This document shows positions 2,743 to 17,680 of a stretch of DNA of 64,000 nucleotides, piece after piece (the first letter of the stretch is position 1; the number at the start of each line of letters is the position of its first letter). The translations under genes and the position numbers were made by a program. The notes beneath the pieces were generated by a model that made no database searches, had not been told where the DNA came from, and saw nothing but the letters and a program-made list of their open reading frames with translations. This stretch comes from Candidatus Hydrogenedentota bacterium. GTDB taxonomy: Bacteria > Hydrogenedentota > Hydrogenedentia > Hydrogenedentales > SLHB01. Where the stretch lies: the NCBI GenBank assembly GCA_029552745.1, contig JAKPDK010000158.1, forward strand, positions 62,001-126,000, read 5' to 3'.

Positions 2743-5325
2743 TCACAGAGACGTACTCTTCTCCTGTTTCAACACTTCCGATATCTTGGCGGTAAACTCG
2801 CTCAAAGTGAACGGCTTTTGAATGAAAGGGACCCCTGGGTCTACCACGCCGTGGTGCACAATAGCATTGTCCGTATACCCCGACATGAAAAGCGCTTTCA
2901 AATTGGGTAGGAATTCGCGAAGCCGCCGAACGATATCCGCCCCGCTCATTCCGGGCAACACGACATCCGTCACTACTATATCTGGCTTTATGCCTTCGCG
3001 TTCTACCAACTGAAGTGCCTGGTTTCCGCTCTCCGCAACAGTGACATGATAACCAAACTCCGATAGCCCCATCTCGAACAATCGGCGCAAAGACGGCTCA
3101 TCTTCGATCAAAAGGATGCATACCTCACTTGGAAGAGACGGTGTCGCCTTTTCTTCTTTCACCGCCTTGTAGGTCGGCTCAGCAAATACACGCGGCAAAT
3201 ACACCTTGAACGTCGCACCGTGACCCGGTTCCGAATAAACGCGAATATGGCCGCCGGACTGTTTCACGATGCCGTACACCGTGGAAAGACCCAAACCGGA
3301 GGCGCGTCCTTTTTCTTTGGTCGAGAAAAACGGCTCGAATATCTTTTCTTGTACGGCTTTATCCATGCCATGTCCCGTATCAGAAACGGCAATCATAATA
3401 TAGCTGCCCGGAGCCACATCGGGACGCAGCTCAACGTATTCCCCGCTTAATTCCACATTTGATGTCTCGATGAGGAGCTTGCCGCCCTGTGGCATTGCCT
3501 CCCGTGCATTTACAGCGAGGTTCATAATCACCTGCTCGATCTGGCTTGGATCCACATTTACACAGCCCATATCATCAGCCAAAATCATATGAAACTCGAT
3601 ATCTTCCCCCAAAAGACGCCGCAACATATTCTCCATGTTTCGCAGTAGATCATTAACATTAAGCACTTCATTCTGAAACATCTGTTTGCGACTGAATGCC
3701 AAAAGCTGACGGGTCAAAAGAGCGGCGTGCCGCGCGGCATTCAGAATCTCTTTAACGTCGGAACGGCGCGGGTCAGTAGCCTCGAGTCGCTCTAGTAAAT
3801 CCTCACCAAACCCCAAGATAACGCTAAGCATGTTATTGAAATCGTGAGCAATGCCGCCCGCAAGCCGCCCTATCGCCTCCATCTTGTTCGTATGAAGTTG
3901 ATGCTCTTCAGCCCTTTTCTGGGCGGTAATGTCCATCCCAAACTCGACTACATTGACCACGTGCTCTTTTTCTCGTATGGGTACTGCGCGTAAGCTCCAG
4001 ATCCTGCCATCGGGCGTCGTAACAACTTCAGTTTCTACCTTCCCGGTCTGGAAGCATCGTTTGACGGGACAAGGGTCGCAGGGCGTAAGCCGCGAATGCC
4101 ACAAAACATGACAGTACTCGCCGATCAACTCGTCCACCTTCTTGCCAAGCCCCTCTGCCGCAGCACGATTCGCCCAAAGGACTCGCAAGTCCGGCGATTG
4201 CAACGTCAAATTAGCCGGTACGGCTTCCAGAAGGGCGTTGAGCTGGGCATTAAGTGTTCGCTGCTCTTTCCCGCGAGCCCATAACTCTTGTTCCAACAGT
4301 ACCTGATCCGTGATATCACGCGCGATGCCTTGGATGCCCACCAAGCCGTTCTGCTCGTCGTATATCGGCACATTACGTTGTTCCGTATAAATCGTTTTAC
4401 CGTTTTTTCGAATCCATCTGAGAACCACCGGATCGGAATTGGGACTTCGTAAGATATCTTTCAAAAGTTCTTGATCTTCGGGATGGACCAGCTTCAGACC
4501 TAGATCGGGATCGTTGTAATGTTCTTCTGGACTGTACCCCGTAATCCTCGAAGCCGAAGGGCTCACATATACGAACCCCCGCGTCGGATACAATTGATAC
4601 ACATAGATGAGATCATTTACCACATGGTCAGCAATAAAGCGCAGTTCCTTTTCCGCTTCTGCATGCTTTCGGCGGCATCTCTCCAAAACTGCCATAAAAT
4701 GCGTCAACTCGTTTTCTGGCGTAAATGCCGCTGGCTGTTCTACCCCCGTATAGCCGAGATTCTCGCAAACGGCTCCCTTTACAAAAACCCACGGGTGCGC
4801 CCGCAGAATCCGTAGCAACAACCAGGGCTCTACTGCCGCTCGGTCATACATGCAAAACCCGATACACCGACTAGAGGGGAAAAAGGAATTCAACTCGTTT
4901 TCATATTCGAATAGTCTTTCGGGGTCTGCTCCGCGGCTCAGAACACCCACCATTTGCCCGCAAACAGAAAGCGCGCTCCAACCGTCCGCCAGAGCCTTTT
5001 CCGTCTCGCTGCTCAAGAACGCAATCATCGCACGGGATGAAAAACCCCCAGACTTGAAATAGGCGTCTTCGTGAGTAAGGAACTGCAATTGACCCGAAGC
5101 AAGTGCCTTCTCCGAGTCAATTCCACGTTCTGCAAGAGATTCCCTAAGGAGAGAGTGTGTATCTCCCTCCGAGATACATATGGCACGGTGGTGGCGCTTC
5201 AGCGCATGCGCAAGAAACTCTGATGTCGCTTGAAAACGTTCTTGGGCATTGTCGAAAATGCCACATAGATGAGTGCCCGGCGCGGCTGACTCTAACCCGT
5301 CAAGTAACACGGAATAATCGGACAT
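2743..5325 (-). CDS. Hybrid histidine kinase: MEDS-PAS-PAS-HisKA-HATPase-REC
   Basis: An 860-residue soluble sensor kinase. Residues about 1-200 match the MEDS domain (named from the methanogen/methylotroph DcmR sensor, related to KaiC-like folds). A PAS domain follows at about 225-345 and a second at about 365-470. The second PAS holds a cysteine cluster (C416, C419, C424; CDPC then CF). The kinase core has an intact H-box (GGIAHDFNN, H494), an N-box (NLAVNAREAM), G-boxes (DTGHGM, GLGLSTVYG) and a C-terminal receiver with phosphoacceptor D787 (VVTDVVLPGMSG) and the KP lysine. It is monocistronic on the - strand with GAGGAG before the ATG. No DNA-binding output domain is present, so the phosphate is probably relayed elsewhere. 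The signal is unknown; small ligand or redox sensing through the cysteines is an inference. Confidence 0.92.
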   Translation of the reverse strand: MSDYSVLLDGLESAAPGTHLCGIFDNAQERFQATSEFLAHALKRHHRAICISEGDTHSLLRESLAERGIDSEKALASGQLQFLTHEDAYFKSGGFSSRAMIAFLSSETEKALADGWSALSVCGQMVGVLSRGADPERLFEYENELNSFFPSSRCIGFCMYDRAAVEPWLLLRILRAHPWVFVKGAVCENLGYTGVEQPAAFTPENELTHFMAVLERCRRKHAEAEKELRFIADHVVNDLIYVYQLYPTRGFVYVSPSASRITGYSPEEHYNDPDLGLKLVHPEDQELLKDILRSPNSDPVVLRWIRKNGKTIYTEQRNVPIYDEQNGLVGIQGIARDITDQVLLEQELWARGKEQRTLNAQLNALLEAVPANLTLQSPDLRVLWANRAAAEGLGKKVDELIGEYCHVLWHSRLTPCDPCPVKRCFQTGKVETEVVTTPDGRIWSLRAVPIREKEHVVNVVEFGMDITAQKRAEEHQLHTNKMEAIGRLAGGIAHDFNNMLSVILGFGEDLLERLEATDPRRSDVKEILNAARHAALLTRQLLAFSRKQMFQNEVLNVNDLLRNMENMLRRLLGEDIEFHMILADDMGCVNVDPSQIEQVIMNLAVNAREAMPQGGKLLIETSNVELSGEYVELRPDVAPGSYIMIAVSDTGHGMDKAVQEKIFEPFFSTKEKGRASGLGLSTVYGIVKQSGGHIRVYSEPGHGATFKVYLPRVFAEPTYKAVKEEKATPSLPSEVCILLIEDEPSLRRLFEMGLSEFGYHVTVAESGNQALQLVEREGIKPDIVVTDVVLPGMSGADIVRRLREFLPNLKALFMSGYTDNAIVHHGVVDPGVPFIQKPFTLSEFTAKISEVLKQEKSTSL

Positions 5326-5593: not shown

Positions 5594-5678
5594 CCCCTTC
5601 GGGCACCCGGGGATGAGGATCAGATCTGGGATATTGCGGTACATTGATAAACAGCCCCTTCGAGCACCCCGGGATGAG
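5594..5678. repeat. Pair of 24-base direct repeats
   Basis: Two copies of a GC-rich 24-mer (CCCCTTCG-GCACC-GGGATGAG core) lie at 5594-5617 and 5655-5678, 61 bases apart, with 22 of 24 positions identical. Each copy can fold on itself through its CCCC and GGGG or GGG ends. Their role is unknown. They lie just upstream of a copy of the larger dispersed element. Confidence 0.75.
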
Positions 5679-5720
5679 CCTGACTTCGTAGTACTACCTC
5701 ACCTTGTCGCACGCCCCCGC

Positions 5721-5870
5721 TGTCATTGCGAGGAGCCCCGAAGGGGCGACGTGGCAATCCCCTCAGGAAGTCGGGGATGACCCGAACCTTGTCTTGCCCA
5801 GGGTTCTCTTGCGCTGCGCGGTCGATGGGATTGCTTCGTCGCGTCGAAGACTCCGCTCCTCGCAATGACA
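5721..5870. repeat. Dispersed inverted-end element, copy A
   Basis: A 150-base element bounded by TGTCATTGCGAGGAG on the left and its exact reverse complement CTCCTCGCAATGACA on the right. Inside each end is a second conserved block (CGACGTGGCAATCCC on the left; GGGATTGCTTCGTCG on the right), so the arms together form about 40 bases of imperfect inverted repeat. The middle is unique. No target-site duplication is apparent. The sequence right after it (about 5877-5900, including AAGCCCAGGTCTACCTCCTC) recurs next to copy D. Confidence 0.9.
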
Positions 5871-6056
5871 ACCTTGCGTATAAGCCCAGGTCTACCTCCT
5901 CGATGCGGTACCAAAGGTCTCTGCTCTTAAACGCCCTACAAGAGACACTTCTTAAGGAGCAACACAGTGAGAAATTGCAGCAATTGATTACTGCATGGAT
6001 GTTTTTCTTTCCAGAGTGTGATAGACTTTTTTCGTGTAGCAAAGGGGAGATGGTTC

Positions 6057-6567: not shown

Positions 6568-7467
6568 CTAAAGTTGGGTCATCGCGCGCAATTGTTGGTA
6601 TCTTCTCTCGATGTCTTGGATGCCAATTTCCACCAGACGAGCGGGACCAAACGCCTCGCAAGTAAATGAAGCGGTTACCGTGCCATAGGCAGCGCCATGA
6701 CAAAGCGTAGGGAAATCAACAATACCTTTACGGGCAAGGAATCCCATAAACCCGCCGGCAAAAGAGTCTCCGGCGCCTGTCGGGTCAACCACGTTCTCGA
6801 GCGGATACGCCGGTAACAGGAAAATTTCATCTTCCTGGACTAGCACACACCCGTGCTCGCCTTTTTTGATGATCACCGTTTGCGGTCCGAGCTCACACAC
6901 GGCACGTGCCGCTTTGATGAGACTCTCCTCGCCGGTGAGTAGCCTTGCCTCTGCATCGTTGATGATCAAGACATGCACCCTTTCCAGGACCGATCGTAAC
7001 AAGTCCGACGTAGTGCGAATCCATAAATCCATCGTATCCAAGCCGACAAAAGAGGCTTCCGATTGATTCAACACATCCAATTGCAGCGCCGGATGTATAT
7101 TCGCTAAAAACAGGAAAGGGGCTTTGCGTGCCGTTTCGGGCAATTGAGGACGAAACGTTTCAAACACGTTGAGTTGCGTGTCTAATGTGTCCCGCTGGTT
7201 TACATCGCGGTGATAACGCCCGGTCCAACGAAACGTGCGTCCACCGGGTACTTGTTCGAGGCCTTCGACGTCTACGCCGCGACGCCGAAGTAATGCCACA
7301 TGCTCCGGTGGGAAATCTTCGCCAATGACACCGATCATGCCGACACGGGCATACAAAGACGCCGCAAAAGAAAAATACGTGGCGGCACCCCCGAGACATT
7401 CTTCGGCTTTTCCCCATGGGGTTTCTACTGTGTCCAATGCTACGGAACCTACGACAGCAACATCCAT
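6568..7467 (-). CDS. PfkB-family carbohydrate kinase
   Basis: A 299-residue ribokinase-fold kinase that phosphorylates a sugar or nucleoside using ATP. The C-terminal signature is intact (DPTGAGDSFAGGFMG, catalytic base D234), and the N-terminal GG signature appears as ECLGGAATYFSFAAS. The substrate cannot be read from sequence. The protein begins VVGSVALDTVETPWGK, a form seen in PfkB proteins of several environmental phyla. The ATG follows AAGGAGAGG and lies 5 bases after the stop of the sigma-54 regulator, so it is the last gene of the signalling operon. This is an unusual place for a sugar kinase. Confidence 0.92.
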   Translation of the reverse strand: MDVAVVGSVALDTVETPWGKAEECLGGAATYFSFAASLYARVGMIGVIGEDFPPEHVALLRRRGVDVEGLEQVPGGRTFRWTGRYHRDVNQRDTLDTQLNVFETFRPQLPETARKAPFLFLANIHPALQLDVLNQSEASFVGLDTMDLWIRTTSDLLRSVLERVHVLIINDAEARLLTGEESLIKAARAVCELGPQTVIIKKGEHGCVLVQEDEIFLLPAYPLENVVDPTGAGDSFAGGFMGFLARKGIVDFPTLCHGAAYGTVTASFTCEAFGPARLVEIGIQDIERRYQQLRAMTQL

Positions 7468-7472
7468 GCTTC

Positions 7473-8906
7473 TTACCTCTCCTTTTTCCTTTCTTCGTGA
7501 CTGAAAAATGCAACCGAGTTTTTATCGTTTTCTCGTACCTCGTCTGGAGGCTTATCGGCGATACCCAATTGATCCATCTTGTATTTCAAAATCCGCCGCG
7601 TGGTGCCAAGAAGTTCCGCCGCACGCAGCTGCACGTAATTCGCCCGTTGCAAAGCTCGCAGGATAAGGTGACGCTCCAAGCGCCGCGTGGCTTCTTCCAA
7701 CGGCAGACCTTCCAGTTCACTCCATACGAACGGCTGTGAATGACCGTTCGTTGGCAGCAACGTCTTTACTTGCGTTTCCGAGATAACCTCAACGTCATTG
7801 TGATGTACCAAGACCCGTTCGATAAGGTTTTCTAACTCGCGTACATTTCCGGGCCAGTCATAAGCGGCTAAAGCGGCAAGGGCATCGGACCGAAAACCTT
7901 TGGCGCGTGCATGTACCCGCGGGGCATGTTTTTCAAGGAAATGTTGGGCAAGCAACGGTATATCTTCGCGCCGCCGTCGTAACGGAGGTATTTCTATAGC
8001 AAGCACATTGATACGGTAGTACAAATCTTCGCGGAATATACCGGCGGCAACCGCCTCTTCCAAATTGCGGTTTGTGGCACAAATATACCGGACATCCAGC
8101 TCGATGCTTTTGGTACTCCCCACCGGAAAAATCTGGCGTTCTTGAACGGCGCGCAACAGTTTGGCTTGCGTTTCCCGAGGCATTTCACCGATCTCGTCTA
8201 AAAACAACGTCCCCTTGTCCGCTATCTGGATACGCCCGATATGGCGTTCGCGCGCATCCGTAAAAGCACCCTTCTCATAACCAAAAAGCTCACTTTCGAA
8301 GAGGGTAGCCGGTATCGCACAACACGACACTGTCACGAAGGGCCCGTTTGACCGTCTGCCGGCATAGTGGATTGCCCGAGCCAATAGATCTTTACCGGTA
8401 CCACTCTCGCCGGTGATCAACACGGTCGAGTCCACATCGGCTGCACGTCGTGCCAGACCCAAAACCTCCTTGAGAGCCGGGCTATTGCCCACAATATCTT
8501 CAAACGTGCAGGCTTCCGATGCACGGCGCGCACGCAACTCTCGCGAAAGCTGCTCCTCTTTCAACGTGCGCTCAATGACGCTTTGAAGTTCCTCCACATC
8601 AAACGGTTTGATCAAAAACTCGCGCGCGCCGCTTTTCATGGCTTCAACGGCAGTGGGCACCGAACGTAGTGCCGTCACGATGACAATAGGCGCGTCGGTG
8701 TACGACCTCAATTTCTTCAGCAAAGGAATGCCACTGAGCCCCGGCATCATCAAATCCAGCAAGATCAAATCCACGTGGGTGGTATCTAACACACGAAAGG
8801 CGGCGTCGGCATGTTCGGCAAGCAGAACCCGATAGTTTTCCGATAGGATGAGCCGATAAGATTCACGGACGCTGCGTTCGTCATCAATGGCTAGGACGGT
8901 CGGCAT
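7473..8906 (-). CDS. Sigma-54-dependent response regulator (NtrC family)
   Basis: A 477-residue transcription activator: receiver domain with phosphoacceptor D51 (LILLDLMMPGLSG) and the KP lysine near 100; AAA+ domain with Walker A GESGTGKD at 166-173; the sigma-54 contact loop reads GAFTDA (213-218) instead of the textbook GAFTGA, a substitution seen in many family members; Walker B region TLFLDEIGEM; and a Fis-type helix-turn-helix at the C-terminus (LRAAELLGTTRRILKYKMDQLGI). The start was placed at the ATG of MPTVLAIDDE, which overlaps the end of the upstream kinase gene by 23 bases and suggests translational coupling. A longer frame to 9002 is only kinase-overlap sequence. It is the likely phosphorylation target of the two kinases upstream. 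Confidence 0.95.
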   Translation of the reverse strand: MPTVLAIDDERSVRESYRLILSENYRVLLAEHADAAFRVLDTTHVDLILLDLMMPGLSGIPLLKKLRSYTDAPIVIVTALRSVPTAVEAMKSGAREFLIKPFDVEELQSVIERTLKEEQLSRELRARRASEACTFEDIVGNSPALKEVLGLARRAADVDSTVLITGESGTGKDLLARAIHYAGRRSNGPFVTVSCCAIPATLFESELFGYEKGAFTDARERHIGRIQIADKGTLFLDEIGEMPRETQAKLLRAVQERQIFPVGSTKSIELDVRYICATNRNLEEAVAAGIFREDLYYRINVLAIEIPPLRRRREDIPLLAQHFLEKHAPRVHARAKGFRSDALAALAAYDWPGNVRELENLIERVLVHHNDVEVISETQVKTLLPTNGHSQPFVWSELEGLPLEEATRRLERHLILRALQRANYVQLRAAELLGTTRRILKYKMDQLGIADKPPDEVRENDKNSVAFFSHEERKKER

Positions 8907-10809
8907 CTTGTTTCTCAGCAAGCGGCAGGCGGAACTGGAACACCCCTCCCTCACCCTCACGTCCAGGCACAAGACGCAGGTCGCCGTCGTGCTGACGCGC
9001 AATACGATGCGCCACCGTCAGCCCCAATCCCATGCCCTGTTCTTTTGTACTGAAAAACGGCATAAAGATATGCGGCGCATCCTGTTCCGCAATACCCGGA
9101 CCGGAGTCGGCTATTACAATTTCGCACCCGTTCTCGTCTTTGCGCGTATTGACCCGCAGCACACCGCCGGAAGGCATGGCTTCGATGGAGTTTTGGAGCA
9201 CATTGTGTAATGCCTGTGACATGTACTCCACGTCAATATTGGCTTCGGGACGATTGGGATCCCACGTAGCCTCTAGCTTGATCTGTCTTTCGCGAAGTTC
9301 CTCTTCGAACGACCGCAGCACGTTCTGTACCGTTTCGTTTAAGTCGACCCGTTTCAAAATAAGCCGCGGATGTCGGGCAAAATCAAAAAGGGTCTCCACC
9401 ACACTATTGATGCGATTTACTTCCTTCTGAACCACATCGCTGAATGCCTCCCGAAAGTCCGGAGAATCATATTTTTTGGGCAGCAATTGGGCAAATGTGT
9501 TTACAGCGACCAACGGGTTCTTAATTTCTTGCGCCACCCGCGAAGCCAGATATTCCCAGAAGGGGCTGTAAGCAATTTCTTCTGCAGACGCCCGTTCCTC
9601 CGGTAGCCGAGAGAAGAGCACTGCAACGCCGTGTTGCCCCAGTGGCGTCGTGCTCAAACCCAACGTCGCATGAATCGCGGGGTCATGAATCTCTTGGCGG
9701 ATACGGGGCTTACCGTCCGCCATGGTACGCAATACCACATCCGCAAAAGCAGACCCGAGTTTCTGCACGCTGCGCCCCAATACGTCTTCGGCACGCACCT
9801 GCAATAGTCGCTCCGCACTACCGTTCAACAATCGCACATTCTTGTCAGCACCTACCACAACCACGCCACTAGAAACGTTCGACAGAATGACATCCAATTG
9901 CTGCTGTTCGACTACCAGCTGGTGATAACGGTGTGCGTTGTCTATGGCAATGGAAGCAGTCCGCGCGATCATCGACAACAATTCGGTTTCTTCGGGAACA
10001 TACTCGCCGCCCGACGCCTTCTCGCCGAGCAACAACGCGCCGCACACTCTGCCTCCCCGCACCAAAGGCACGCCAATTTTCGCCCCTAATATCGCCATTT
10101 GTTTGCGGGCATCGGGGTCTGAAGCCGCAGCGGAATCGAAGATGCACGCGTTCGACTCGAACCATCTCATTAGACCATAGTTAAAACGGAAGCGCGCGGA
10201 TTCCTTTACGGCATCCGGGATGCCGTGACTCGCCGTGATACCGACGCCCCGCCCGTCTTCCTCAAGTAATACCGCACATCGCGTCACATTGAACACGTCA
10301 ATTAAGGCGTCAATGAGCGACTCGCTCAGCCGTCTTGTATCGGCTATATAACTGGATATTCGTCCCAACCAGCGAAGCGCCGTCTGATATTGAATCAGAT
10401 TCGGCGTTCGACGACTGACATCCCCCCCATTTTCTCTTTGCGGTGAGACAGGTCGTACCGGCAACGGGATCATCCCTTCCAAAATCCGCCGCAGCGCATC
10501 ACACCCAAACGGTTTCACCAGATAACCGGTCGCGCCGGCAAGGGCAATAGATGCCAAGGTCTCCGTATCACTTCGACTGGTCAACATCAGAATAGGTAAA
10601 TACGGATACGATTCACGGATTCGTTTGACAGCCGGTAAACCGAGATTCGGCGTATCGTCTACGATAACCGCGTCCGCCTTCATGCTAATAAGTCGCCGCA
10701 GGGCGTCTTCTGCCTTTGATTCGCATAGCGACAACGAGGTGTCCCCCAACGCGGTACGAAGCGACTCGCACAGGGAACGGTCGTCGGCAACGATAAGAAT
10801 CACTTCCAC
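8884..10809 (-). CDS. Receiver-GAF-PAS-histidine-kinase-like protein lacking the phosphoacceptor histidine
   Basis: A 641-residue soluble protein: N-terminal receiver (D51/D52 in VIVDDTPN, lysine in LVKPF), a GAF domain at about 150-305, a PAS domain at about 315-415, then a dimerisation and ATPase core. The H-box reads VAQEIKNPL: the histidine expected at residue 427 is glutamine (codon CAA at 9529-9531), while the neighbouring Glu and Asn are kept. The ATP-binding lobe is intact (NVLQNSIEAM, DSGPGIAE, GMGLGLTVAH). It probably cannot autophosphorylate at the normal site but could act as phosphatase or allosteric partner for the adjacent kinase and regulator. It starts 6 bases after the upstream kinase and overlaps the regulator gene by 23 bases. 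Confidence 0.93.
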   Translation of the reverse strand: MEVILIVADDRSLCESLRTALGDTSLSLCESKAEDALRRLISMKADAVIVDDTPNLGLPAVKRIRESYPYLPILMLTSRSDTETLASIALAGATGYLVKPFGCDALRRILEGMIPLPVRPVSPQRENGGDVSRRTPNLIQYQTALRWLGRISSYIADTRRLSESLIDALIDVFNVTRCAVLLEEDGRGVGITASHGIPDAVKESARFRFNYGLMRWFESNACIFDSAAASDPDARKQMAILGAKIGVPLVRGGRVCGALLLGEKASGGEYVPEETELLSMIARTASIAIDNAHRYHQLVVEQQQLDVILSNVSSGVVVVGADKNVRLLNGSAERLLQVRAEDVLGRSVQKLGSAFADVVLRTMADGKPRIRQEIHDPAIHATLGLSTTPLGQHGVAVLFSRLPEERASAEEIAYSPFWEYLASRVAQEIKNPLVAVNTFAQLLPKKYDSPDFREAFSDVVQKEVNRINSVVETLFDFARHPRLILKRVDLNETVQNVLRSFEEELRERQIKLEATWDPNRPEANIDVEYMSQALHNVLQNSIEAMPSGGVLRVNTRKDENGCEIVIADSGPGIAEQDAPHIFMPFFSTKEQGMGLGLTVAHRIARQHDGDLRLVPGREGEGGVFQFRLPLAEKQDADRPSH

Positions 10810-10815
10810 GGATCA

Positions 10816-13317
10816 TCACTCCCCAATTGCGACCAGGTTCTCTGCTGCAGGCAGTGAAAGCGTAAAGGTGGTTCCCTTGCCGACAGCACTCTCAAAGTCT
10901 ATGTGCCCTCCATGGTCTGTTACAATCCCATGCACCACCGAGAGCCCCAAGCCCGTACCCGACTCTTTGGTCGTGAAGAACGGACTGAAAATCCCTTCAT
11001 ATTCTTCAGGGGCAATCCCGCATCCCGTGTCGGTAACGCTGACCTTGATACACGCTATCATCCCCAGCTTAAAATAACCCTCCCGACGTAACGACTCGTT
11101 CTCTCGCCAAGCGCGAATGTTCAAACACCGAGTGTCCATGCCCTTCATGGCATCAATCGCATTTAAAATAAGGTTTAGAAACACCTGGTGCAATTGCTGC
11201 TCGTCTCCTCGAACCATAAGAGGCTCTTCCCCATAATCGGTGCAAACTTGAATCCTTTCGCTCCGAATCTGATTGTCCACAAGCAACAAGACCTTGTCGA
11301 TGATGGTACGAATATCGTGCCTACCGTAACGCGATGGTTTGGGGCGCGCAAAGTCCAGAAGACGACTTACAATGGCATCGATACGATCTACTTCTGCAGG
11401 AACCACTTCACTGAACGTGGCACGAAAATCTGCATCATCAAATCGTTTCAAAAGCAATTGCGACATGCTTTTAATAGACACCAACGGATTCTTGATCTCG
11501 TGCGCCATACCTGCTGCCAGCGTGCCGACCGACGACAATTTATGCGCGCGCTGGACGTTCCGCTCGAGACGTTTGATTTGAGTAAGGTCATACACCATCA
11601 CCATGGCGCCCGAGTGTTCTTCCCCGCCTGTGGCAGGCAAGGGAGCTGAAGACAGGGCTACAGGAACCTCTTCTCCATCTTTCGTTGTAACCAACGCCTC
11701 AAATCCCTGGACGGCTTGATGCTCGCGTAATGTTCTTTTTAAAAGATAGGATATAGGTGCGGGTAGAGTTTCGAGGGATTGTCCCATCTCAATCACCCCT
11801 AAAATATTCCGCGCTGCATGATTAACGGTCGTGATTCGCCCTTCCGAGTCTACTGCAATGACGCCGCTTTGCATGGTCGTGAGAATGCGTTCTCGGTGAA
11901 GGGTTGCTTCCTCCAACTTCTGATACAGTCGGGCGTTCTCAATCGCCGCCGCCACCGGACTCGCCAATGCGGAAAACACCACAGCATCTTGTGAGATGTA
12001 CATGTCCCGGGAGACCCTCTCGCCGAGCGTCAGAATCCCCGAAAGACCAAATTTACTCACAAGCGGGACACAAAGGTGGGCATCCAATTCGGCAAGATAT
12101 TCCGCCAACCGAATACGTTCCGGATTCGGTCTGCCGTGGATCAGCTGCTCTAAAATCACGGGAGCGGGACGCTTCTCAAAATAGTCTAATAATTCTCGAT
12201 ATTCATCAAATTGCTGTCCCTTTTCTTCCCGGTTTGTTGAATAAGCAACAAACAAGGTTGTGCTGTTTTTTTCGTCCCGCAGAAGCACACGCACGCACTT
12301 TACGCCGATTGTCCGTTCGATATCCTGGCATACCGTCTCCAATAACTCGTCCAATTGAACCGTCCGAGCTGCATTCCGGCTGACACGGGCGAGAAACTCA
12401 TGGCTGTTATAGCGTCGTTTCAACAAGGTACGATCGAGGATCAGTTGAAGTCGTTCTTTCAAAGGCTCCAGCACCAACACAACGATCACTGCCGCAACAA
12501 AGGTGGGAACAAGAGCACTGGTGTTTTTCCCAGCGCGGGTTAACCAATGCGTCACCGTCACGGCGACGGAAAAGGCGGTTACAACGAATCCTAGCGCGGC
12601 GGCATATACGGCCGTGCGAGACACGATCAGACGCACGTCCATTAAGTGATAACGCACCATAGAATACGCAAAAATGACCATCATGCCGGCGCCAGCAATA
12701 GGACCGTAGGCTTGCGAATCACTGAATCCCAAAGCCGGCAAAACAACGTTGGTAATCGTTGCTGTGACGGTGCATACCGAAATGCCAAGTATGACGTGCT
12801 CGACCTGTCGTCTCTCCAAACCGACGCGTCCCCGCCGTTTCGAAAACAACATCGGGAATGACCAAAACATGGTAGCGGCAATCAACGTACCATAAAGATA
12901 AAACACAGGACCATACACGGTCACGGGCGGACGCCCCTCAATGATCTCGATCGAACCGATATACCAAGGGGTAAACGCCAACGGTATCAGAAACACCGGC
13001 GCTACCGTGAGCAAATATAAGAACCATCTGGGACCTTCGTAGTCTGACCGTGGGAAAACGCCAACAAAGTAATGAAACGCTGCGGGCAACCACGCCACAG
13101 CAAGGAACGTGGCACGGACCCAAAACAGGGCGTCTTCCACAGTCCTGGACCGGACGATGAAAATCACCCCGAGTGACCATAGACCTAACAGACCCGCGAG
13201 CAGCGAGAAAGCGACATGACTCCTACGATACGGATTTCTAAGCAACACCAGCACGGCGAGTGCGGCGCACGTGATTGCGCCCAAACCGTGCAAGACTATT
13301 AGAATGGAATAATGCAT
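10816..13317 (-). CDS. Membrane histidine kinase: multi-TM, GAF, PAS, HisKA, HATPase
   Basis: An 833-residue sensor kinase. The first 270 residues hold about seven to eight hydrophobic segments, like the 7TM sensor modules of histidine kinases, followed by a GAF domain (about 310-480), a PAS domain (about 485-590) and a full kinase core. The H-box is canonical (AHEIKNPLVSIKSM, H606), with N-box NLILNAIDAM, DTGCGIAPEE and GTGLGLSVVHG. Its ATG immediately follows the stop codon of the ketoacyl synthase gene (TAG then ATG), and it ends 6 bases before the second kinase. The phosphoacceptor and the sigma-54 regulator downstream indicate that this is the active kinase of a three-protein phosphorelay. 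The signal is probably membrane-associated or intramembrane; this is inferred. Confidence 0.93.
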   Translation of the reverse strand: MHYSILIVLHGLGAITCAALAVLVLLRNPYRRSHVAFSLLAGLLGLWSLGVIFIVRSRTVEDALFWVRATFLAVAWLPAAFHYFVGVFPRSDYEGPRWFLYLLTVAPVFLIPLAFTPWYIGSIEIIEGRPPVTVYGPVFYLYGTLIAATMFWSFPMLFSKRRGRVGLERRQVEHVILGISVCTVTATITNVVLPALGFSDSQAYGPIAGAGMMVIFAYSMVRYHLMDVRLIVSRTAVYAAALGFVVTAFSVAVTVTHWLTRAGKNTSALVPTFVAAVIVVLVLEPLKERLQLILDRTLLKRRYNSHEFLARVSRNAARTVQLDELLETVCQDIERTIGVKCVRVLLRDEKNSTTLFVAYSTNREEKGQQFDEYRELLDYFEKRPAPVILEQLIHGRPNPERIRLAEYLAELDAHLCVPLVSKFGLSGILTLGERVSRDMYISQDAVVFSALASPVAAAIENARLYQKLEEATLHRERILTTMQSGVIAVDSEGRITTVNHAARNILGVIEMGQSLETLPAPISYLLKRTLREHQAVQGFEALVTTKDGEEVPVALSSAPLPATGGEEHSGAMVMVYDLTQIKRLERNVQRAHKLSSVGTLAAGMAHEIKNPLVSIKSMSQLLLKRFDDADFRATFSEVVPAEVDRIDAIVSRLLDFARPKPSRYGRHDIRTIIDKVLLLVDNQIRSERIQVCTDYGEEPLMVRGDEQQLHQVFLNLILNAIDAMKGMDTRCLNIRAWRENESLRREGYFKLGMIACIKVSVTDTGCGIAPEEYEGIFSPFFTTKESGTGLGLSVVHGIVTDHGGHIDFESAVGKGTTFTLSLPAAENLVAIGE

Positions 13318-14562
13318 CTAATTCATCCGACCCAATACCACTGCCGTATGGGTTCCTCCAAAACTCATCGCGCTCACCAACGCCGTCCGTACATCATTCA
13401 GACGTGCCGTTTGCGGCACGTAATCCAAGTCGCAAAGCGGATCGGGGTCTTCTAAATTCACCGTCGGGGAAATGATGCCCGTTTCGAAACTCATCAGAGC
13501 AGCCGCCACCCCAAATAAGCCCCCCGCGGCGTACGGTTGACCAATCATGGACTTCACAGCAGATATTGGTATCCGATACGCCGATGCCCCTAACGCCCGC
13601 TTGTATGCTGCCGTCTCACTACGATCATACATTTCCAAGGAAACCCCGTGGGCTTCTATCAAGTCGATATCTTGAGGTTGTATTCCAGCATTCTTCAATG
13701 CGGCAGATACCGCCCCACCAAGTCCCGTGCCCTCCGGATCCATAATGAGAGCGCTACGGGCTTCGGCAGCAGCGCCAAACCCCAGGATCTCACCAAAGAT
13801 CTTGGCGCCTCGCGCCAGGGCGCAACTCCTCCGTTCCAAAACAAGGGCGACTGCCCCCTCACTCAAGACAATTCCATCGCGGTGTTTGTCAAACGGCCGC
13901 ATGGCTTTTTCCGGAGCGTCGTTGCGTTTCGAGAGGATGCCCAACGAACAGCCCGCCGCAAGTGACATCGGAAAAATCGGAGACTCTGTGGCTCCGACGA
14001 GTGCACAGTCCACCGCGCCCGAACGTATCTGGGAAACACCCCACGTCAAGACGTCTAACCCTGTCGCACAACCACTGGCAATGGTGATCGCTGGACCACG
14101 AAAGCCAAAGTCTATCGTCACATGGACAGTGGCAGAATGTCCCGAAAACTTCGAAGAAGCCAATTTTCCGACTTTACGGTAGCCACCCGATTCGTAAGCC
14201 TCTTGGTGGGCTTGATATTGCTCGTTAGGGCCACCGATGCTCGTCCCAATGCCTGTAGCAATCCGTTCTGGATCGTAACCCGCTGTTTTCAACGCCGCAT
14301 CTTCCACAGCAAGCTTAGAACAAGCCAATGCCTGGTGAACATGCCGACACCACGTCTGCACAATATTCTTTTTCATGAAATCTTCGGGGTTAAAGTCCCA
14401 CAATTCGCCGGCTATCTGACAGGGTAAACCACTGGCATCAAAACGACGAATCGTACGTATTCCCGACCGCCCTTCTTGGATCGCCTGCCAGAAAGCTTCC
14501 CGACCCAAACCGTTGCAGGCAAGTACCCCGACGCCAGTTATGACAATCGGATCTCGATTCAT
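13318..14562 (-). CDS. Beta-ketoacyl synthase (FabF-like) with altered catalytic triad
   Basis: A thiolase-fold condensing enzyme that would extend acyl chains by decarboxylative condensation, about 414 residues from the preferred ATG (an in-frame GTG at 14586 gives 422; numbering here uses the longer form). The nucleophile is present (C173 in ASGCATGLD), and the first histidine is present (H313 in EAHG). The second histidine of the usual GH-x-x-GAAG motif is glutamine (Q350 in KSMIGQPYAAGG, codon CAA). The acyl-carrier protein and other fatty acid genes are absent nearby. The gene abuts the membrane kinase gene and lies 116 bases after a radical SAM gene, so it may belong to a specialised lipid or polyketide pathway. 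Housekeeping FabF is less likely. Confidence 0.88.
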   Translation of the reverse strand: MNRDPIVITGVGVLACNGLGREAFWQAIQEGRSGIRTIRRFDASGLPCQIAGELWDFNPEDFMKKNIVQTWCRHVHQALACSKLAVEDAALKTAGYDPERIATGIGTSIGGPNEQYQAHQEAYESGGYRKVGKLASSKFSGHSATVHVTIDFGFRGPAITIASGCATGLDVLTWGVSQIRSGAVDCALVGATESPIFPMSLAAGCSLGILSKRNDAPEKAMRPFDKHRDGIVLSEGAVALVLERRSCALARGAKIFGEILGFGAAAEARSALIMDPEGTGLGGAVSAALKNAGIQPQDIDLIEAHGVSLEMYDRSETAAYKRALGASAYRIPISAVKSMIGQPYAAGGLFGVAAALMSFETGIISPTVNLEDPDPLCDLDYVPQTARLNDVRTALVSAMSFGGTHTAVVLGRMN

Positions 14563-14678
14563 AGAACCGTTCTCAATGTTGACCACTGTGCAAAACCCGT
14601 TTCTGGTTTTCTAGATCAAGCTTTCACTTTTATTGTACACGCCGCCGCGGGTTCAAAGAAATGCCGGCGCGACACATG

Positions 14679-16367
14679 TCAAGGTTCGCCCACCGCCGGA
14701 CGCAACGGTTTTGCAGAACGTCCCGCCGCAGGAACCATGAGCACCTCGTTCACCTTTCGTAACCAATCTTGAAGCGATTCGACATCGCCGCTAAACATCC
14801 GCGTGATAAGCTCTGCTCTCACAGCACTTGGAGTTTGACCCAACATATGGCCTGCAAGCGCATAGACTTCCGTGACTCCGGTCGGAATACCCATCCCTTC
14901 CACAGCCGCTAATAGACTCTCCTGTTCTTGGACTACCTGGCTGGATGCAAAGGAACCCACTCGATACGGTAGATTTTGCCAACGCCCCACAGGTAGCGGG
15001 AAGCGTGTCCTGCTTTGAGCCCAGGGTTGCTCCAAATACTTAGCCGGGATCCAAAATCCAAAGCGAGTCGCGTGTCCAAACCAAACCGAGCGCGGATGCA
15101 TCTCAGGCAGAACGACGCAAGCAAAATCGGGTTTCGTACGAGTAAGGAACCGTAGGGTCTCCTCCCTGGTGTGGTAATCATCTCCCGGGCTCGGATACGT
15201 CAGTCGCACAATCGTGCGCAGTCCAGCCCTTTTCGCTTCCCGTAACAAGGTCTCCATATGCGTCACGCACGTGTTTTTGCCGAAACAGTCTTCCAAAAGC
15301 CGCTGACTGCCCGTGTCTACATTAAACGTTACCACATGACATCCAGACGCATGTAGCGACTGAAACACGTCAGACGATGCAGAACAAACATGGATCCGTC
15401 GCGCCGAAACAGTCACCAAACCTTGCCGCAAAAGAGCAAGCGCTACACTGCCCGAATGGGCGGCTCCCGATGCGGTCGTGTCCGAAAATCGGAATGCAAT
15501 CGTGCTATACACGGCCTGCAATCGTCGAATTTCATCACACACCGAACGAACTGGTCGAGGACGCATCCACCGCTCCGTTGTCATTCGTGAACAGGAGTAA
15601 CACAAACGAGGACAACCCCGACTTTCTTCAATTTCGAAGATGCGCAGCTTGTTTCCCTTGTCCTCCAAGCAGGGATAAACCTCAGGGTCATACAGGGGGA
15701 CAGGCATACGGGTTAGGTCGGCAGGCTCCGCTACGGTCCGACGGATTTTGCCGTTCTCACGGAAAATCAAGTTCGGTAGTTCGGACCAATCATACCTAGA
15801 GGAAAGTCGGTCCGCCCAAGATGGCACCACCGACTCTCCGTCGCCGCGGAAAATACAATCGATCGCTTCGCTTGCCCCTGCGAGCATTTCGCCATATAAA
15901 TCCGCATACCTGCCGATAAGAGCCACTTTTCGTTGCGGACAGAGCTCGCGTAATTCACCCGCTATCTGAAAAATGGGTTCCACGTCATCCGCACCCTGCA
16001 CCGAAAAAACGACAAAATCCGACGAACGCTGCGCCAACTGCTCGGCAATCTCGCGACATTTTTTCGCCATTGCAGAACGAAACGCCCTGTCGGTGGAATG
16101 GACAGTCCACATCATATGAAGTGCGGAAAAGGGATTGTTGACTTCTCCGGCGGCGTCAAGTCGTTTTACCAACGTAATTACAGATTCTCTCAGAGAGCCG
16201 GGTATCAAACTTGTTAAAAATACGGGCGTGCCAAAATCAATAATTTCCGCTTCAATGCCGGCTTCCTTCAGGTAACCTGCGACAGTGGCAAGCTTGCGGT
16301 CAGGCAAAAAACTATCAATCTGTGTGGGATATCCGGGCACTCGAACAAGCAAACCGCGGGTTTTCAT
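14679..16367 (-). CDS. Radical SAM protein with B12-binding-like N-terminal domain
   Basis: A 562-residue protein. The radical SAM cluster motif is CxxxCxxC (C252, C256, C259 in GCPRLCYSC), followed by the barrel region. The first 200 residues have the Rossmann-like layout of cobalamin-binding domains that precede such barrels, but the DxHxxG cobalamin ligand motif is not visible, so any B12 would bind without that histidine. Reaction and substrate are unknown. The family includes methyltransferases and cyclases acting on lipids and peptides. The ATG follows GGGAG. It is upstream of the ketoacyl synthase on the same strand, which suggests a joint role in an unusual lipid or natural product. 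Confidence 0.85.
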   Translation of the reverse strand: MKTRGLLVRVPGYPTQIDSFLPDRKLATVAGYLKEAGIEAEIIDFGTPVFLTSLIPGSLRESVITLVKRLDAAGEVNNPFSALHMMWTVHSTDRAFRSAMAKKCREIAEQLAQRSSDFVVFSVQGADDVEPIFQIAGELRELCPQRKVALIGRYADLYGEMLAGASEAIDCIFRGDGESVVPSWADRLSSRYDWSELPNLIFRENGKIRRTVAEPADLTRMPVPLYDPEVYPCLEDKGNKLRIFEIEESRGCPRLCYSCSRMTTERWMRPRPVRSVCDEIRRLQAVYSTIAFRFSDTTASGAAHSGSVALALLRQGLVTVSARRIHVCSASSDVFQSLHASGCHVVTFNVDTGSQRLLEDCFGKNTCVTHMETLLREAKRAGLRTIVRLTYPSPGDDYHTREETLRFLTRTKPDFACVVLPEMHPRSVWFGHATRFGFWIPAKYLEQPWAQSRTRFPLPVGRWQNLPYRVGSFASSQVVQEQESLLAAVEGMGIPTGVTEVYALAGHMLGQTPSAVRAELITRMFSGDVESLQDWLRKVNEVLMVPAAGRSAKPLRPAVGEP

Positions 16368-16533
16368 TTATTGCGATCTCCCACCGATCCCCATAATCGG
16401 TGTTATTTATTTCTGGCACCACATTTTGTGGCCCCATTTGCATTACGAAATCCCACAGAACACAATATAATGACGCTATACTATCATAAACGCAATATAT
16501 ATGCAAGCCAGATCTAACGTTCTACAATATATA

Positions 16534-16555
16534 GAGGTGACATTTATTTCACCTC
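16534..16555. promoter_or_regulatory. Perfect inverted repeat, possible operator or hairpin
   Basis: GAGGTGA and TCACCTC form perfect 7-base arms around an 8-base AT-rich spacer. The site lies about 170 bases upstream of the - strand radical SAM gene in very AT-rich DNA. It has no following T tract, so an operator or leader hairpin is more likely than a terminator. The role is inferred from symmetry alone. Confidence 0.45.
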
Positions 16556-16697
16556 AATAAATCGTGAAAAGTGCGTAGGTGTGTCTTTTGTTTCGTTTCT
16601 ATGACGCTTATGCGGACATCGCTCGGTTCCGAACATGCCTCGCCTCTACCGCGTCCGTAGGTGTGGAGAATCCCCGTCCAGCACATTGTCCCCTGGT

Positions 16698-16955
16698 TGT
16701 CATTGCGAGGAGCGATTCTTCGAGCGACGAAGCGATCCCCTCATCTTTGTTTTAGGGGGCACAGCAGGTTGCGTCCTATTCTGCCCCCGGGTTATCCACC
16801 CGGCACCTAAGGGGATTGCCACGTCGCCCCTTCGGGGCCCCTCGCAATGACAGCCGGGTAGCGAAGCGCAATAGGATACCGCACAAAAACGGAGACTTTC
16901 CGGACTTCCTGAGGGGATTGCCACGGGGTGCCTGGCAGCACTCCTCGCAATGACA
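16698..16955. repeat. Dispersed inverted-end element, composite copy B
   Basis: A full element (16698-16852) with TGTCATTGCGAGGAG on the left and a slightly altered right end (CCCCTCGCAATGACA), followed about 60 bases later by a second right-type end (16911-16955, ending CTCCTCGCAATGACA). Read on the - strand it is two left ends and one right end. The unique middle contains further hairpins, for example CCGGGT paired with ACCCGG and GGGGGCA paired with TGCCCCC. The outer right end shares its inner sequence (CAGGAAGTC next to GGCAATCCCCT) with copy A. Confidence 0.88.
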
Positions 16956-16976
16956 AGGTATTACGAAAACATACCC

Positions 16977-17006
16977 TTGACACATCTTAGACGTACGTGG
17001 TAGACT
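16977..17006 (+). promoter_or_regulatory. Sigma-70 promoter of the tetR operon
   Basis: A perfect -35 box TTGACA (16977-16982), an 18-base spacer and a -10 box TAGACT (17001-17006, 4 of 6). Transcription would start near 17013, inside the palindromic operator. Confidence 0.7.
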
Positions 17007-17011
17007 TTAAC

Positions 17012-17033
17012 TAAATAACTAACTGGTTATTTA
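17012..17033. promoter_or_regulatory. Palindromic operator, probable TetR autoregulatory site
   Basis: TAAATAAC and GTTATTTA form perfect 8-base arms around a 6-base spacer. The palindrome begins 6 bases after the -10 box and ends 14 bases before the tetR start codon, where a bound repressor would block transcription. This placement is typical for autoregulated TetR genes. Binding by the adjacent TetR protein is an inference. Confidence 0.65.
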
Positions 17034-17047
17034 TAAAGGAGCCGAAG

Positions 17048-17680
17048 GTGAGCTCAAAGGCATGGAAAAGACAACCAGAAAAACGACCCGCCCAAATCAT
17101 GGAAGCGGCAATACGCGTGTTTTCCGAAAAAGGATTCCGCGCCGCGACTATGGACGAGGTGGCTGACGCCGCCGGAATTACTAAGGGGACTATTTACCTC
17201 TATTTCGAAAGCAAAACGGAACTTTTCGTCGAGGCCGTCCGTGCGCAGCTCCAGGAAGTTTTGGATTTGCTTCCCAGCATCCAGTATGAACCCGGAGCGG
17301 ACCCGGAAAAGCTCACCAAAGAGCTCGGGGTGAAGTTTTTGGATGTTCTAATGTCCGAAAAAGTCGCCCAGGTCATCCCGCTGATTATCGCGGAATTTAA
17401 GAACATCCCGGTGTTGAAGCAAATCTATTTTAGCGAAATATTGAGCAAATCAGATTTTCAGGTGGCTAATTTAATTGAAATGGGCAAAGCGCTGGGACTG
17501 GTGCGAGACGTCGAGCCGATGATCGCAACCCGATTGTTGCTTGGATCCTTTTTCCTTTTCGCTCTGACACAAGAAGTACTTGGCGCTAAAGAGGTTACTC
17601 CCATGAATCCGGGGGACATCGCCGCTACCATTGCAACAGTTTGTTTTCGCGGCCTGATGAAAACGGAGGCACTCCCTTGA
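17048..17680 (+). CDS. TetR/AcrR-family transcriptional repressor
   Basis: A 210-residue regulator with an N-terminal TetR helix-turn-helix at about residues 10-60 (IMEAAIRVFSEKGFRAATMDE, then ITKGTIYLYFESK) and a helical ligand-binding C-terminal domain. It starts with GTG after AAAGGAG. Its stop overlaps the TTG start of the HlyD gene, and the order tetR-hlyD-ABC ATPase-ABC permease matches the ybiH-ybhGFSR type of export operon. It probably represses its own operon through the palindrome at 17012-17033 and is released by a toxic or lipophilic ligand. The ligand is unknown. Confidence 0.93.
   Translation: MSSKAWKRQPEKRPAQIMEAAIRVFSEKGFRAATMDEVADAAGITKGTIYLYFESKTELFVEAVRAQLQEVLDLLPSIQYEPGADPEKLTKELGVKFLDVLMSEKVAQVIPLIIAEFKNIPVLKQIYFSEILSKSDFQVANLIEMGKALGLVRDVEPMIATRLLLGSFFLFALTQEVLGAKEVTPMNPGDIAATIATVCFRGLMKTEALP

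What the first reader, a model, noticed from the sequence alone, without database searches (positions are those of the whole stretch)
13318..14562. Ketoacyl synthase with Cys-His-Gln instead of Cys-His-His
C173 and H313 are present, but the lysine-linked motif reads KSMIGQPYAAGG, so the second catalytic histidine is Gln350 (codon CAA). In FabF-type enzymes this histidine helps stabilise the decarboxylation step. The gene lies beside a radical SAM gene and fused in order with a signalling operon, and no acyl-carrier gene is near, so it may serve a specialised pathway with a changed mechanism.
Basis: partly seen in the sequence, partly recalled or inferred. Interest (0 to 1): 0.55.

Follow-up and report, generated by a model that had tools for sequence, protein, structure and literature searches.

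The report
Altered ketosynthase tied to sensor kinase
The odd active-site glutamine is real and belongs to a family of fatty-acid-type enzymes that, in four bacterial phyla sampled, sit beside a membrane sensor kinase, which suggests an undescribed chemical signalling system that still has to be tested.

Summary
In detail: the minus-strand KS has Cys173, His313, Lys345 and Gln350 (codon CAA) where FabF has His340. It is no private mutation or read error: 34 of 34 distinct Hydrogenedentota sequences read have Gln. With relatives from three more phyla they form one clade, marked by Tyr at FabF Gly310, and mostly Glu at Asp265 and a non-Asn residue at Asn404, all gate positions of FabF. Gln occurs in 59 of 64 clade members and 0 of 68 other KSs; Cys, His and Lys are kept in 64 of 64.

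The larger finding is context. Of 64 clade members, 61 have at least 600 nt of downstream flank, and 61 of 61 are followed on the same strand by a kinase of one N-terminal type; KS and kinase distances track each other (r = 0.90). In Hydrogenedentota the order radical SAM-KS-HK1-HK2-NtrC is kept in 17 of 17 stretches.

Best reading, inferred: an active, short-substrate KS makes a ligand, or its precursor, for the adjacent kinase. Rivals: specialised lipid or polyketide synthesis under its own two-component control, or a KS acting as acyl-ACP sensor. No biochemistry exists.

The parts
13318..14586 (-). FabF-fold ketosynthase with Cys-His-Gln and Tyr at the FabF Gly310 position (the ATG at 14562 is the likelier start: most orthologue matches begin at about that residue)
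13537..13548 (-). codons 347-350 (M-I-G-Q); the Gln350 codon CAA is 13537-13539
14679..16367 (-). radical SAM protein with a weak B12-binding-like match; CxxxCxxC seen by eye
   Evidence: Pfam PF04055 38.9 bits; PF02310 22.7 bits, below its cut-off; relative at the same place in 17 of 17 Hydrogenedentota stretches
10816..13317 (-). HK1: sensor kinase with HisKA_7TM, GAF, PAS, HisKA, HATPase; its ATG follows the KS stop codon with no gap
   Evidence: downstream partner type in 61 of 61
8884..10809 (-). HK2: receiver, GAF, PAS, histidine kinase
7473..8906 (-). NtrC/AtoC-type sigma-54 response regulator (listed ORF starts upstream at 9002)
6568..7467 (-). PfkB-type carbohydrate kinase at the end of the run; matched in 11 of 17 relatives' stretches (in L033 only partly and further away)

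Best explanation
The gene belongs to a distinct FabF-fold ketosynthase clade that works as the biosynthetic arm of a dedicated two-component signalling island. Shown: the clade, its changed active site and gate positions, its kept Cys-His-Lys, and its constant pairing with a kinase that has a 7TM/GAF N-terminal half. Inferred: Cys173 takes a short acyl group from an ACP encoded elsewhere; Gln350 stands in for His340 as a neutral hydrogen-bond donor, as Asn does in Cys-His-Asn condensing enzymes; Tyr320 fills the pocket into which the FabF gate residue Phe400 swings, so long acyl chains are disfavoured; the enzyme condenses or transfers the acyl unit, the radical SAM enzyme modifies it, and the product is sensed by the membrane half of the neighbouring kinase, which drives the NtrC-type regulator. 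This would be a synthase-receptor pair built on ketosynthase chemistry.
For: Gln in 59 of 64 Tyr310 KSs and 0 of 68 others; Thr305 and Thr307 both replaced in 64 of 64. Cys163, His303, Lys335 kept in 64 of 64. Tyr310 rows form one clade, SH-aLRT 96, columns 305, 307, 310 and 340 left out. HK1-type kinase downstream on the same strand in 61 of 61 Tyr310 KSs with at least 600 nt of flank; of the 67 other KSs (E. coli aside) 61 have such flank and 9 hit: 7 in the sister clade, 2 elsewhere. All seven kinases scanned with Pfam carry HisKA_7TM. KS and kinase distances correlate, r = 0.90, 57 pairs, 0 of 2000 permutations. KS stop and HK1 start abut in the window. Biosynthetic company inside the Tyr310 clade: radical SAM genes in Hydrogenedentota (17 of 17), in the Planctomycetota-type phylum and in L182; ACP with one or two further KSs in L142, L209, L211. 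In the sister clade: polyketide-cyclase fold, SDR, methyltransferases, B12 radical SAM. FabF G310F/M mutants keep short-probe but lose most long-probe crosslinking (PMC7138838, passages). Model pLDDT 91; best PDB match T. thermophilus FabF, TM 0.94.
Against: No product, ligand or activity is known. In 13 of 13 stretches of the Rokubacteria phylum no relative of the window's radical SAM protein was found, so that step is not general, and most of the clearly polyketide-like tailoring genes come from the sister clade, whose active site is an ordinary Cys-His-His. The sister clade has the same kinase partner, so Gln and Tyr310 are not needed for the pairing. Five Tyr310 members have His. Position 265 is Asp in 8 of 64 and otherwise Glu, a mild change unlike the D265A/N mutants; Phe400 is another residue in 24 of 64, so the gate argument is uneven. 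Other genes recur too: a divergent PfkB-type gene in Rokubacteria stretches. No sigma-54 promoter excess in the window (28 against 30.6 expected). Adjacency cannot tell ligand synthesis from co-regulation.
Confidence: 0.4

Rival explanations
1. Specialised lipid or polyketide synthesis whose genes are merely controlled by the adjacent two-component system; the product is a membrane or secreted metabolite, not the kinase's ligand.
For: Two further KSs, an ACP and a radical SAM gene beside the KS in 2 of 7 stretches of the Planctomycetota-type phylum (L209, L211); ACP and a second KS in L142; tailoring genes in sister-clade islands.
Against: The kinase, not any tailoring gene, is the constant neighbour (61 of 61); no ACP in the window and no radical SAM relative in 13 of 13 Rokubacteria-phylum stretches.
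Confidence: 0.32
2. The KS is a sensor subunit: it is acylated at Cys by short acyl- or malonyl-ACP but does not condense, and reports acyl-ACP status to HK1 by contact.
For: Changed second His and gate positions; Thr305 and Thr307 both replaced in 64 of 64; Cys kept in 64 of 64; KS-HK co-inheritance.
Against: Biosynthetic genes in many islands; His present in 5 members without loss of the pairing; no contact data.
Confidence: 0.2
3. Ordinary FabF in which one residue drifted neutrally, placed by chance near signalling genes.
For: FabF fold and 41% identity to a solved FabF.
Against: 352.2 bits against the FabF cut-off of 493.75; separate clade; pairing kept across four phyla; another KS with the usual His in the same genome.
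Confidence: 0.05
4. Sequencing or assembly error at the codon.
For: The genome is a draft of 188 contigs.
Against: Gln at the column in 34 of 34 distinct Hydrogenedentota sequences.
Confidence: 0.01

Closest known systems
FabF (KAS II), e.g. T. thermophilus and E. coli
   Same: Fold over the whole length, active Cys, first His, Lys.
   Different: Second His is Gln, Gly310 is Tyr, Thr305/Thr307 are Val/Leu, Asp265 is Glu, Asn404 is His in the window; NCBIfam FabF cut-off not reached.
Phc quorum sensing of Ralstonia (PhcB methyltransferase, PhcS kinase, phcBSR operon; starts of abstracts, passages of PMC11960443)
   Same: Gene for an acyl-modifying enzyme in one operon with a sensor kinase and response regulator; ICMT-type methyltransferases occur in three sister-clade islands.
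   Different: The enzyme here is a ketosynthase; sequence relation to Phc proteins not tested; regulator is NtrC-type; no methyltransferase seen in the window's island; signal unknown.
PpyS photopyrone synthase with receptor PluR (PMC4578411: start of abstract, one passage)
   Same: A condensing enzyme that makes a cell-cell signal; triad C129-H281-N310, so an amide side chain serves at the third place there.
   Different: Another branch of the thiolase fold (recalled); receptor is LuxR-type (listing), not a kinase.
Divergent FabF paralogues of anammox bacteria (PMC2649909: abstract and passages)
   Same: FabF relatives with changed active-site residues in clusters with radical SAM genes.
   Different: All six rows of Table 2 that I saw lose the active Cys; the words sensor, two-component and response regulator have 0 occurrences in that main text.

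Membership tests
FabF / KAS II | whole-protein score above the curated cut-off of TIGR03150 | tested here: not met
   352.2 bits against 493.75
FabF / KAS II | Cys-His-His active site | tested here: not met
   Cys-His-Gln
FabF / KAS II | FabF fold | tested here: met
   model pLDDT 91, TM 0.94 to 1j3n
FabF / KAS II | elongates long acyl-ACP by decarboxylative condensation | not testable with these tools
   needs an assay
KS-beta / chain length factor | active Cys lost (recalled definition) | tested here: not met
   Cys kept in 64 of 64
KSQ decarboxylase | Gln in place of the active Cys (recalled definition) | tested here: not met
   Cys present; the Gln is at the second His
Cys-His-Asn condensing enzymes (KAS III, PpyS) | Asn at the third catalytic place | tested here: not met
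   Gln there; protein matches ketoacyl-synt PF00109/PF02801
PEP-CTERM PrsK/PrsR | kinase and regulator above NCBIfam cut-offs TIGR02916/TIGR02915 | tested here: not met
   115.4 against 300 and 378.2 against 502.6 bits
Phc-type autoinducer system | PhcB-like methyltransferase in the operon | not tested
   no Phc sequence was compared; none recognised by eye among the ORFs
Phc-type autoinducer system | diffusible acyl-derived signal sensed by the adjacent kinase | not testable with these tools
   no chemistry available
KS-HK island (defined in this report) | Tyr310-clade KS followed on the same strand by a 7TM/GAF kinase | tested here: met
   PF16927 65.7 bits in the window's kinase

The most novel reading that the evidence does not exclude
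A widespread but undescribed family of synthase-receptor signalling systems in mostly uncultivated phyla: a ketosynthase with a Cys-His-Gln site and a filled gate pocket makes a short acyl-derived autoinducer that is read by its own 7TM histidine kinase and an NtrC-type regulator, with different tailoring enzymes giving different dialects.
Probability: 0.33. Interest if true: 0.85.

Novelty: new variant of a known kind. Interest (0 to 1): 0.62.

Why it matters
It gives a natural set of 64 enzymes in which the gate pocket, and in 59 of them the second catalytic His, of FabF are changed together: a test of the published gating model. It also predicts a signalling chemistry in phyla where no cell-cell signal is known to me. 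The unbroken KS-kinase pairing makes the idea directly testable with a few cloned genes.

Tried and rejected
Rejected: read error (34 of 34); private drift; chain length factor or KSQ (Cys kept); PrsK/PrsR membership (below cut-offs); defence system (PADLOC at E 1e-10: no match for KS, radical SAM, both kinases and PfkB; the regulator matches RtcR-type models only).

Led nowhere: sigma-54 consensus in the window, 28 matches against 30.6 expected; promoter-like scan of 13000-17100, 1 against 3.1; plasmid protein search, 123 records, all under 60% identity, not followed; phylum of G068, 199 genomes, one match at E <= 1e-138, an ordinary FabF by its motifs. One search returned the same matched genomes as but for the centre, because both centres lie in one phylum. 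Paper searches returned nothing; 53 (7 listed), 60 (3 listed) and 44 (15 of 150 listed) showed nothing on this pairing in titles and abstract starts. No tRNA in the window.

Limits: the tree is a quick one with SH-aLRT only; the branch joining the Tyr310 clade and its sister has 81, and L203 and others hang unresolved near it. For one search, 223 hits were cut to 217 (at least 360 aa) and 131 distinct, plus E. coli; for the tree two divergent rows were dropped and 130 thinned to 106. The profile was built from five kinases that belong to the islands it was tested on. The correlation includes sister-clade rows, and shared descent alone gives part of it. Of the 38 Hydrogenedentota genomes with a match, the places in G006, G040 and G045 were not read and G053 only in pieces. 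In some searches and 36 loci were given for only the best matches, so members of the clade may have been missed. Phyla are named after MAG titles, not by a classification of mine.

Full report
Observation. The ORF is on the minus strand, 13318-14586 (GTG) or from the ATG at 14562. It carries the Pfam ketoacyl-synt N and C domains. Gln350 is coded by CAA at 13537-13539 and aligns with His340 of E. coli FabF; Cys173, His313 and Lys345 align with Cys163, His303 and Lys335.

Relatives in the same phylum. The genome (4.36 Mb, 188 contigs) groups with MAGs titled Candidatus Hydrogenedentota (a few relatives bear other titles). A protein search matched 38 of 68 genomes of the phylum at E <= 1e-95; 0 of 17 genomes of family f10 and 0 of 4 of family f6 matched. 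All 30 family members first read, window included, have Gln, as have all 34 distinct sequences of the final set.

Wider clade. Searches of the phylum of a Rokubacteria MAG (95 genomes), of a phylum with MAGs titled Deltaproteobacteria (247 genomes) and of the phylum of a Planctomycetota MAG (199 genomes) gave KSs with the same signature, Tyr-Asp after the first His motif. In the phylum of an Aminicenantes MAG, 199 genomes gave one match at E <= 1e-138, an ordinary FabF by its motifs. In a set of 131 distinct KSs plus E. coli FabF, 64 have Tyr at position 310: Gln340 in 59, His in 5. Of the other 68, 64 have His, 2 Phe, 1 Asp, 1 Arg and none Gln. Glu265 is in 56 of 64 against 1 of 68; Asn404 is kept in 2 of 64 against 64 of 68; Thr305 and Thr307 are both replaced in 64 of 64. 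Cys163, His303 and Lys335 are in 64 of 64. On a tree built without columns 305, 307, 310 and 340 the Tyr310 rows are one clade (53 rows, SH-aLRT 96), and Gln/His needs 4 changes, most simply one gain and three returns (the direction is my reading).

What the changes may mean. In crosslinked E. coli FabF the carbonyl of the substrate mimic meets His303 and His340, and Asp265, Asn404 and the pocket at Gly310 belong to a gate (PMC7138838, passages). There G310F/M keep 70-85% crosslinking with C2/C3 probes but 1-33% with C8/C12; D265A/N fall to 1-2% with C8 but only to 51-64% with C12. Here nature has Tyr at 310 and mostly Glu at 265. I infer a preference for short acyl groups. Gln can still give a hydrogen bond, as Asn may in Cys-His-Asn enzymes such as PpyS; whether decarboxylation survives is unknown.

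Neighbours. In the window the KS stop codon abuts the ATG of HK1 (833 aa; HisKA_7TM, GAF, PAS, HisKA, HATPase), followed by a receiver-GAF-PAS-kinase, an NtrC-type regulator and a PfkB kinase, with a radical SAM gene upstream. No ACP match lies in the 64 kb. In 17 of 17 Hydrogenedentota stretches the order radical SAM-KS-HK1-HK2-NtrC recurs on one strand; PfkB was matched in 11 of 17, in one of them partly and further off. In the Planctomycetota-type phylum HK1 follows in 7 of 7 and a distant relative (about 21-23% identity) of the window's radical SAM protein stands upstream in 7 of 7 by one or other; two of these proteins were scanned with Pfam: both are radical SAM, one passes and one just misses the B12-binding cut-off. 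In the Rokubacteria phylum HK1 follows in 13 of 13 and no relative of the radical SAM protein was found; there a divergent PfkB-type gene, a secreted-looking protein and a UvrD-type gene recur upstream (two PfkB and one UvrD checked).

Control for the pairing. A profile of five HK1 N-terminal halves was run on translated flanks. Of 64 Tyr310 KSs, 61 have at least 600 nt downstream and 61 of 61 hit on the same strand. Of 67 others, 61 have flank and 9 hit: 7 lie in the sister clade (11 rows, Cys-His-His) and 2 among the other 56 rows, namely L142_5716, which stands in a KS-HK island, and L203, unresolved near the base. Of the four sister rows without a hit, L161 has a kinase further down behind a B12 radical SAM gene; L151, L154 and L158 end within 400 nt at contig ends. 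So the pairing is older than the Gln. All seven kinases scanned with Pfam, from both clades, carry HisKA_7TM. KS and kinase distances correlate at 0.90 over 57 pairs, sister rows included (0 of 2000 permutations; 0.66 within 25 Hydrogenedentota rows); shared descent gives part of this.

Biosynthetic company. In the Tyr310 clade: radical SAM genes as above and a B12 radical SAM gene in L182; ACP in L142, L209 and L211 with one or two further KSs. In the sister clade: polyketide-cyclase fold (L192), SDR (L183, L184), methyltransferase (L183), ICMT-type methyltransferases (L184, L192) and B12 radical SAM (L193); an ICMT-type gene also precedes the unresolved KS of L212, the same gene as L203. Varied tailoring genes around a constant KS-kinase core look like ligand synthesis plus receptor. 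The nearest known layout is phcBSR of Ralstonia, where PhcB makes a fatty acid methyl ester read by the kinase PhcS (starts of abstracts, passages). The likeness is of arrangement only.

Literature. Searches for the triad, for KS with sensor-kinase neighbourhoods and for Hydrogenedentes with kinase and ketoacyl terms showed nothing on this pairing (empty; 44, 60 by listing); the library lacks most subscription papers. A 2009 paper on anammox FabF paralogues has no occurrence of sensor or two-component in its main text.

Verdict. The synthase-receptor reading is inference, at about 0.4.

Noticed in passing
L209:2485-3711 and L211:12565-13869: KS-beta-like partner proteins beside an ordinary KS and an ACP in KS-HK islands: Ala falls at the active Cys in the alignment (a Cys stands one residue on) and both His are replaced.
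   Followed up: partly
L139:10210-14202 (also the 1508-aa ORF of L076): UvrD-type helicase with a PD-(D/E)XK end and an intein/Hint match inside, divergent from the KS island in the Rokubacteria phylum.
   Followed up: partly
L065, L075, L083: MAG records titled Nitrospiraceae, Rhodothermaeota and Bifidobacterium breve; the first two hold KSs that fall inside the Hydrogenedentota group, so the titles may not fit the bins.
   Followed up: no
window 5620-6042: Overlapping Arg/Gly/Pro-rich ORFs on both strands between the PfkB gene and the large hybrid kinase; may be a non-coding interspersed repeat.
   Followed up: no
window 2743-5325: Another large PAS/receiver hybrid kinase (CckA-like by NCBIfam, below cut-off) on the same strand about 1.2 kb downstream of the island.
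   Followed up: no
window 16382-16555: Terminator-like hairpins on both strands upstream of the radical SAM gene; 8 such sites in 13000-17100 against 4.7 in shuffles.
   Followed up: no
L183, L184, L192, L194, L212: KSs with an ordinary Cys-His-His site that also precede 7TM-type kinases, several with tailoring genes between or beside; a second branch of the same kind of island.
   Followed up: partly
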